Below are positions 20,900-21,190 of a DNA stretch of 64,000 nt, piece by piece. The DNA comes from Anadara kagoshimensis. Its lineage: Eukaryota; Mollusca; Bivalvia; Arcoida; Arcidae. Under the pieces are notes generated by a model, which worked only from the letters and a program-made list of their open reading frames with translations, did no database searches and was not told where the DNA came from. Positions within the stretch are counted from its first letter, which is position 1. Each line of letters opens with the position of its first letter. A program made the position numbers and the translations under genes. The stretch covers positions 12,984,791-13,048,790 of the forward strand of contig CM037872.1 of assembly GCA_021292105.1 (NCBI GenBank), written 5' to 3'.

Positions 20900-21190
20900 A
20901 TTTTGGTTCTTTGGGTATTTTTAACATCATAAAAAAATATTTTGGTTTCACAATTTTGTCCAAGCGCTACTGATGAGGAATTGTATTCCGAAACAGCCGT
21001 CTAGTGCTGTAAAATTAACACTGGTATAATATGTAATTCTTAACTAAGATTTATCTTAACTTAAATCTGGCAAAACTTCAAATCTTAATAATTTTGTTGT
21101 TTCTTAAGATACAGTGGAATTTAAGATGTCATTTTGAAGATGAGTTAAGCCATATATTGTTTGTATTTTGTTTTTAGTTTAAACAGTATT
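20900..21190 (+). mobile_element. repeat carrying the hammerhead, followed by a MITE fragment
   Basis: Upstream flank 'tttggtttcacaattttgtc' resembles the flank of the ribozyme at 50715-50760 ('ggtttcactattttggttca'), so the ribozyme sits in a mobile repeat. From about 21030 the sequence ('taactaagatttatcttaac', 'tttaagatgtcattttgaag') matches the middle of the MITE at 29043-29294. Confidence 0.6.
20963..21008 (+). ncRNA. hammerhead ribozyme (type I), complete
   Basis: All conserved parts are present. Stem I: AGCGCTA (20963-20969) with TAGTGCT (21002-21008), 7 bp including one G-U. Core CTGATGA: 20970-20976. Stem II: GGAA (20977-20980) with TTCC (20986-20989), loop TTGTA. GAAA: 20990-20993. 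Short stem III: AC (20993-20994) with GT (20999-21000), loop AGCC. Cleavage site GTC, cutting after C21001. Hammerheads with very short stem III are known from Penelope-like elements and metazoan retrozymes and usually act as dimers (family knowledge). It lies within a METTL27-like intron on the opposite strand and is the intact member of a dispersed repeat. Confidence 0.85.

What the first reader, a model, noticed from the sequence alone, without database searches (positions are those of the whole stretch)
20963..21008. Intact type I hammerhead ribozyme in a dispersed repeat
Every conserved hammerhead nucleotide is present (CTGATGA, GAAA, GTC), with a 7-bp stem I, a 4-bp stem II and a 2-bp stem III closed by AGCC. 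Very short stem III is the form seen in Penelope-like elements and metazoan retrozymes, which work as dimers. Finding the same element again at 50715 (other strand) and in decayed form at 35905 and 18838 shows a mobile family and not chance.
Basis: partly seen in the sequence, partly recalled or inferred. Interest (0 to 1): 0.75.

Follow-up and report, generated by a model that had tools for sequence, protein, structure and literature searches.

The report
Truncated copy of hammerhead retrozyme
The hammerhead ribozyme is real: it sits in a shortened copy of a small jumping element, repeated thousands of times in this animal genome, whose insertions mostly stop at the same point and look as if they were copied round and round from a tiny RNA circle.

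Summary
Observation confirmed: all conserved hammerhead nucleotides lie at 20970-21001, and the window holds four copies of one repeat. The repeat is a metazoan non-LTR retrozyme: a 339-bp non-coding unit, 4,249 ribozyme cores in the genome (control 0), often in tandem.

The window copy is not a working unit: 0.95 unit, 5'-truncated, 86% identical to the consensus, one ribozyme. The family's stem III strand is a palindrome (ACGGCCGU) predicted to pair between neighbouring ribozymes (22 of 26 natural pairs folded); the window copy has lost it.

New detail: 52 of 59 insertions end at one internal point, 35-44 nt past the cleavage site, whether short or multimeric; start points vary. Units of one insertion share derived variants 8 times more often than units of different insertions (4 times without one pentamer). 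This fits rolling-circle reverse transcription of a circular RNA from a fixed internal site. Penelope-like elements of this genome have the same layout (hammerhead, short tail, end), but no shared sequence was found, so the driver is unproven. Cleavage and circles were not tested.

Known kind, new member. Rfam's Hammerhead_1 model scores the site below threshold (14.2 against 34 bits).

The parts
20717..21038 (+). Retrozyme copy, 0.95 unit (unit positions 51 to 339, then 1 to 37), 5'-truncated
   Evidence: blastn of family consensus 86.3% identity
20952..20957 (+). Outer stem I strand AATTTT (pairs with 21011-21016), beyond an internal loop
   Evidence: sequence; 95.1% of cells paired in 17 copies but no covariation
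20963..20969 (+). Stem I 5' strand AGCGCTA
20970..21001 (+). Hammerhead core CTGATGA ... GAAA ... GTC; predicted cleavage after 21001
20993..21000 (+). Stem III strand ACAGCCGT; the family consensus has the palindrome ACGGCCGT
21002..21008 (+). Stem I 3' strand TAGTGCT
21011..21016 (+). Outer stem I strand AAAATT
21002..21038 (+). 3' tail of the insertion, ends at the family's usual end ATATGTAA(TT)
20707..20713 (.). Putative 5' target-site duplication TTCTTAA (3 nt before the aligned 5' start)
21037..21043 (.). Putative 3' target-site duplication TTCTTAA (overlaps the last TT of the element)
50682..50880 (-). Second retrozyme copy (75% identity), hammerhead core 50722-50753, stem II with one mismatch
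35860..35979 (+). Decayed retrozyme copy (66% identity), ribozyme core lost
18839..18891 (+). 3' fragment of a retrozyme copy (76% identity), begins inside the ribozyme

Best explanation
The feature is a 5'-truncated, decaying copy of a non-LTR retrozyme family. Proposed cycle: (1) read-through transcripts of tandem copies carry two or more hammerheads; (2) neighbouring hammerheads pair through the palindromic stem III strand ACGGCCGU into a double hammerhead and cut, freeing a 339-nt monomer; (3) a host RNA ligase closes it into a circle, which with one hammerhead does not readily recut itself; (4) a reverse transcriptase of a non-LTR/Penelope-like element starts at a fixed internal site about 35-44 nt past the cleavage site, target-primed, and runs round the circle from about 0.3 to 5 times, giving insertions with one fixed 3' end, variable 5' ends and closely alike units. 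Shown by sequence: the repeat family, the usual 3' end, variable 5' ends, shared derived variants in arrays. Predicted by folding: the double hammerhead. Inferred: cleavage, the circle, the ligase (from PMC7229834) and the identity of the reverse transcriptase.
For: 4,249 cores genome-wide, control 0. 3' end at unit position 33-45 (observed 35-44) in 52 of 59 insertions, 18 of 23 in the set found by the core pattern alone; none of the 23 ends at the cleavage site itself, although the pattern would have found such copies. By alignment, 19 of the 52 run across two or more cleavage-site positions and the other 33 across one (copies were chosen for holding a ribozyme). Genome counts: a 17-mer at the 3' end occurs 9,347 times, but only 1,228 (13%) when extended 8 nt across the end; the same extension inside the body keeps 3,663 of 4,957 (74%). 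Units of one insertion share derived variants: 17.1 per kb within against 2.1 between (22 insertions, 59 pairs); 8 of 8 full-unit pairs (6 arrays) share at least one against 179 of 812 between. Folding: the two-hammerhead consensus transcript pairs stem III across units (probability 0.83-1.0), as do 22 of 26 natural neighbour pairs folded. Flanking direct repeats above permuted pairs (mean 5.87 against 5.13, sd 0.15, 0 of 300; 51 insertions). Penelope-like elements of the same genome: RVT_1 plus GIY-YIG; in family F1 10 of 19 exact-ribozyme copies end about 59-66 nt past the hammerhead and 9 of 19 run on into a shared interior (read by eye).
Against: No RNA data: neither cleavage nor a circle was observed. 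No covariation in the ribozyme stems (0 of 19 pairs changed on both sides). Of 11 naturally seen stem III loops folded in the consensus dimer, only GGCC pairs above 0.5; the palindromic GATC gives 0.03, AGCT 0.48 and the non-palindromic GGCT 0.47, so palindromy alone does not decide the fold. Among the 100 cores listed the loop decays freely (69 GGCC; GATC 1 and AGCT 1; counted by eye), no clear excess of kept palindromes. 29 of 59 within-insertion pairs share no variant, the pentamer L077 supplies 84 of the 122 shared variants (without it 9.0 per kb, my subtraction), and some shared variants (unit 13-14 T/A) are subfamily-wide. Flanking repeats lean on one locus (L082, 24 bp, whose flank is itself repetitive). 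7 of 59 insertions do not show the usual 3' end. No sequence shared between retrozyme and Penelope tails was found, and the divergent inverted pairs of Penelope family F1 (12 of 19 copies) were not clearly seen in retrozymes. The circular monomer is not unusually stable (z -0.9).
Confidence: 0.7

Rival explanations
1. The arrays arise after insertion by unequal crossing-over or replication slippage (satellite-like spread); the hammerhead is an inherited passenger and no circle is needed.
For: Concerted evolution also makes units of one array alike; L024 units share variants unevenly (6, 2, 2); L031/L032 hold a changed junction between units.
Against: Insertions of only 1.4-1.65 units already share variants (L014, L020, L028), with little room for repeated exchange. 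Arrays of different sizes end at the same unit position, which exchange does not predict.
Confidence: 0.15
2. The template is an uncut linear multimer of a genomic array, reverse transcribed by target priming from an internal site; the ribozyme plays no part, as reported in vitro for the anole Penelope protein, whose ribozyme mutants still insert (PMC11167929).
For: Insertions run across uncut cleavage sites; the anole Penelope RT starts internally and unprocessed RNA is its main substrate in vitro (parts 1 and 2 of 4).
Against: Would copy several slightly different units of the source; instead units of one insertion share derived variants. Still compatible if source arrays are themselves homogeneous.
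Confidence: 0.2
3. Chance hammerhead-like string in an ordinary SINE or MITE.
For: Rfam Hammerhead_1 only 14.2 bits; loose pattern close to chance in the window.
Against: The family consensus keeps every core nucleotide, a 7-bp stem I with a further outer helix, and a palindromic stem III, in thousands of copies; units of retrozyme size stand in tandem.
Confidence: 0.05

Closest known systems
Metazoan non-LTR retrozymes, especially Mytilus galloprovincialis (PMC7229834; abstract and sections 13, 14, 17 read)
   Same: Type I hammerhead; small non-coding low-GC tandem repeats (mussel about 350-390 bp, about 5,000 ribozyme copies; here 339 bp and 4,249 cores); no LTR layout, no ORF; dispersed.
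   Different: Here the consensus stem III is predicted to pair between two units (the paper reports a need for dimers in amphibians and efficient cleavage in most invertebrate ones); one usual internal 3' end measured. Circles not tested here. Sequence likeness to the mussel element not tested.
Penelope-like elements (PMC11167929, parts 1 and 2 of 4 read; families found here)
   Same: Hammerhead-like motif with short, mostly palindromic stem III (in the host's own elements ACATGT or AGCGCT; exceptions L056 AGCACT and L061 AACGCT), then a short tail and an end; tandem copies; reverse transcription started inside the RNA.
   Different: The retrozyme codes for nothing, shares no detected sequence with the Penelope tails, and does not end in (TA)n as the sampled copies of families F2-F4 mostly do.
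Plant LTR retrozymes (PMC4918200, search listing only; features from PMC7761336 passages and PMC7229834 section 13)
   Same: Non-autonomous, hammerhead, circular RNA model.
   Different: Plant ones have LTRs, a tRNA primer site and type III hammerheads; the present unit shows a type I hammerhead and no LTR layout.

Membership tests
Metazoan non-LTR retrozyme | Type I hammerhead with all conserved nucleotides | tested here: met
   family model
Metazoan non-LTR retrozyme | Non-coding unit of about 150-450 bp, GC under 50%, in tandem copies | tested here: met
   339 bp, GC 33.9%, longest open stretch 49 codons; insertions of 0.26 to 4.6 units seen, the longest cut by its locus edge
Metazoan non-LTR retrozyme | No LTR, primer site or polypurine tract; target duplications, if present, over 4 bp | tested here: inconclusive
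   No LTR layout seen in 59 insertions; flanking repeats of 7 to 24 bp in some; primer site and polypurine tract not searched for
Metazoan non-LTR retrozyme | Ribozyme self-cleaves | not testable with these tools
   folding only
Metazoan non-LTR retrozyme | Expressed as linear and circular RNA | not testable with these tools
   no reads available
Rfam RF00163 Hammerhead_1 | Covariance score at or above gathering (34 bits) | tested here: not met
   14.2 bits, E 1.2; absent at E<=10 in the whole window
Penelope-like element | ORF with reverse transcriptase and GIY-YIG endonuclease | tested here: not met
   longest open stretch of the unit 49 codons
Penelope-like element | Insertion end a short fixed distance past the hammerhead (internal start of reverse transcription) | tested here: met
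   52 of 59 insertions; same layout in the host's own Penelope families
Plant-type LTR retrozyme | Long terminal repeats with type III hammerhead | tested here: not met
   stem I is the open end, so type I; no LTR layout

The most novel reading that the evidence does not exclude
A metazoan retrozyme is mobilised by Penelope-type reverse transcriptase through rolling-circle, target-primed copying of its RNA circle from one fixed internal site, and a dimer-only ribozyme acts as the switch: tandem transcripts cut themselves, finished circles do not. This would answer two questions left open in PMC7229834: which enzyme moves them, and why the circles stay closed.
Probability: 0.4. Interest if true: 0.75.

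Novelty: new member of a known kind. Interest (0 to 1): 0.5.

Why it matters
A review states that metazoan retrozymes show no conserved motif pointing to the element that moves them (PMC7761336, passages read). A usual end just past the ribozyme, like that of the host's own Penelope elements, is such a pointer, and thousands of insertions in one genome make the circle model testable by sequence. The palindromic stem III gives a simple testable reason why circles might stay closed. Among the 30 held open-access papers of 2019 or later with the word retrozyme (titles and abstract starts only) I saw none that announces this, but I opened only three papers, so it may be in print.

Tried and rejected
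Rfam over the whole window and over 201 bases: below threshold; I blame the very short stem III, which is inference. Covariation in 17 copies: none, the copies are alike. Nearest-neighbour identity of units: only 3 of 13 units found their own array as nearest, because copies closest to the consensus win; replaced by shared derived variants. Global fold of the circle: not unusual. Search for a Penelope element sharing the retrozyme's sequence: (12 loci, E<=10; 32 stretches) gave clear matches only in L045 and L058, read as retrozyme copies nearby, and a 28-bp piece in L055 that I did not examine; the F1 tails L103-L116 were compared by eye only. Inverted pairs as a Penelope hallmark: in retrozymes only pairs whose members differ in identity to the reference, not counted as support.

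Rows dropped: of 40 loci from the first search 4 duplicates (L002, L015, L031, L040) before the end counts; of 30 pattern loci 7 that share an array or flank with another (L074-L076, L086, L092, L095, L098); L002, L015, L031. The first 40 were chosen by likeness to the window copy, the other 30 are the first matches on contig C1, and both ways demand a ribozyme. One of the 52 start points (L077) is the edge of its locus, not a true 5' end; that array is about 1.7 kb (5 ribozymes).

Never answered: genome counts of stem III loop GATC and of CTGAGCCGATATCTCTG; the genome-wide palindrome test is therefore missing.

Full report
What was checked. A loose hammerhead pattern in 64 kb is close to chance (3 found, 0.64 expected, 3 of 100 shuffles reach 3), and Rfam's own model scores the site at 14.2 bits against a gathering score of 34, with no hammerhead at E<=10 when the whole window is scanned. 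The case therefore rests on the repeat. The core occurs 4,249 times in the 1.115-Gb genome from which the window comes, backwards control 0. In the window the unit consensus finds four copies, at 20717-21038, 50880-50682 (minus), 35860-35979 and 18839-18891; the reversed window gives none. Their 3' ends fall at unit positions 37, 40, 29 and 37.

What it is. I read 40 loci found by likeness to the window copy and 30 loci found by the core pattern. Removing duplicates left 59 insertions (36 and 23). The unit is 339 bp, 33.9% GC, with no open stretch over 49 codons, and many copies stand head to tail. These are features by which metazoan non-LTR retrozymes were defined (PMC7229834, sections 13, 14 and 17 read; mussel units of about 350-390 bp and about 5,000 copies).

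The ends. In 52 of 59 insertions the 3' end falls at unit position 33-45 (observed 35-44), counted from the cleavage site. The seven exceptions are L017, L032, L081, L089, L093, L100 and L102. In the set found by the core pattern alone it is 18 of 23. This holds for a fragment of 88 bp and for the longest array (1,570 bp in L077, cut by the locus edge; about 1.7 kb). Genome-wide, a 17-mer reaching the end has 9,347 matches, of which 1,228 (13%) continue 8 nt into the next unit. The same 8-nt extension in the body keeps 3,663 of 4,957 (74%). The 5' starts lie all round the unit, with a mild cluster at 66-90 (13 of 52; 13 of 2,000 uniform simulations reach it; 6 of 18 in the pattern set). That cluster falls on a GC-rich hairpin just beyond the presumed start site, as if the enzyme stalled there after one round; this is inference. 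Direct repeats flank insertions more than in permuted pairs (5.87 against 5.13, sd 0.15, 0 of 300 for 51 insertions), but one locus with 24 bp and a repetitive flank contributes about half of the excess. The window copy shows TTCTTAA on both sides.

A circle as template. All 52 insertions run across at least one cleavage-site position and 19 across two or more. The copies were chosen for holding a ribozyme, so the first part is partly by construction; but a copy ending at the cleavage site would have been found by the core pattern, and none of the 23 does. The template was therefore not a linear monomer cut at that site. Units of one insertion share derived variants: 122 in 7.1 kb of comparisons (17.1 per kb) against 979 in 458 kb between insertions (2.1 per kb). 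In full-unit comparisons 8 of 8 within-array pairs share at least one variant, against 179 of 812 between. The pentamer on C1 (L074-L077) supplies 84 of the 122; without it the within rate is 9.0 per kb (my subtraction). 29 of 59 pairs, mostly short overlaps, share none. Copying one circle several times explains this; exchange within arrays after insertion or a homogeneous source array could mimic it.

The ribozyme probably works in pairs. The family stem III strand, ACGGCCGU, is its own reverse complement. Alone, the consensus ribozyme prefers a fold without stem III (-12.3 against -7.0 kcal/mol for the hammerhead fold). Two consensus copies fold into the double hammerhead, and a 454-nt consensus transcript with two ribozymes one unit apart does so with pair probabilities of 0.83-1.0. 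Of 26 natural neighbour pairs, from 17 of the 19 loci tried, 22 have six or more of the eight pairs above 0.5. Of 11 naturally seen loops placed in both units, only GGCC passes 0.5: AGCC (window copy), GACC, GGTC, GAAC (copy at 50715), GGCA, GCCC and AGTC give 0, but the palindromic GATC also gives only 0.03, AGCT 0.48, and the non-palindromic GGCT 0.47. So the prediction is specific to the consensus, and palindromy alone is not the whole rule. The window copy keeps the core but has lost the dimer contact, and it has a single ribozyme. A palindrome of four free bases has a prior chance of 1 in 16, and in 100 listed cores I saw no sign that decay spares it (counted by eye), as expected for dead copies. 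The Penelope elements of this genome mostly have palindromic stem III strands too, ACATGT and AGCGCT; L072 has AGTACT, two changes that keep the palindrome, while L056 and L061 have lost it.

Who moves it. The host holds Penelope-like elements (50 GIY-YIG matches at E<=0.001 among scored candidates; RVT_1 and GIY-YIG in L046). Of these 50 I read stretches at 32 (12 loci, 20 flanks of 1.4 kb). Family F1 has 19 exact ribozymes: 10 end about 59-66 nt past the cleavage site and 9 run on into a shared interior. F2 ends about 39 nt past it, F4 at about 45-52 or about 85-95 nt, mostly in (TA)n (read by eye). In vitro, the anole Penelope enzyme starts reverse transcription inside the RNA, at sites matching the genomic tails (PMC11167929, parts 1 and 2 of 4 read). 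The retrozyme's layout is the same, and F1, like the retrozyme, ends outside (TA)n. But no shared sequence was found, F1 makes divergent inverted pairs that the retrozyme does not clearly make, and in the anole system ribozyme mutants still insert. So 'moved by a Penelope enzyme' is the best guess, not a result.

Verdict. A real hammerhead motif and a real mobile family; the copy itself is a truncated remnant. The kind is known; this genome's family adds a measured usual end, evidence for copying from a circle, and a ribozyme predicted to work as a dimer in what is probably a bivalve.

Noticed in passing
20717-21038 and surroundings (L001, L002): At least 2.8 kb around the window copy is duplicated 542 kb away on the same contig (C16:13547916) at 93% identity, retrozyme included.
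   Followed up: partly
Penelope family F1: C2:17777610/17777662, C11:8114159/8114194 and four more pairs: 12 of 19 exact F1 ribozymes stand in 6 divergent inverted pairs; two pairs are 19 and 2 bp apart, joined at or near the ribozyme's 5' edge, as if synthesis folded back at the ribozyme hairpin.
   Followed up: partly
L072, 3' end of a diverged Penelope element: Stem III strand AGTACT against AGCGCT in its family: two changes that keep the palindrome.
   Followed up: no
61417-61884 (+): Tc1/mariner-type transposase fragment (HTH_32, HTH_Tnp_Tc3_2).
   Followed up: no
43580-43915 (-): ORF that reads like a Tc1 transposase catalytic piece by eye; no Pfam match at E 0.01.
   Followed up: no
56058-57812 (+): 584-codon open frame without any Pfam match at E 0.01.
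   Followed up: no
60007-60149, 3023-3241, 58773-58853: Long inverted repeats (83-88% self-complementary), MITE-like, that Rfam reads as microRNA hits below gathering score.
   Followed up: no
3740-3821 (+): Complete tRNA gene, 66.3 bits; anticodon read by eye as GCT (serine).
   Followed up: no
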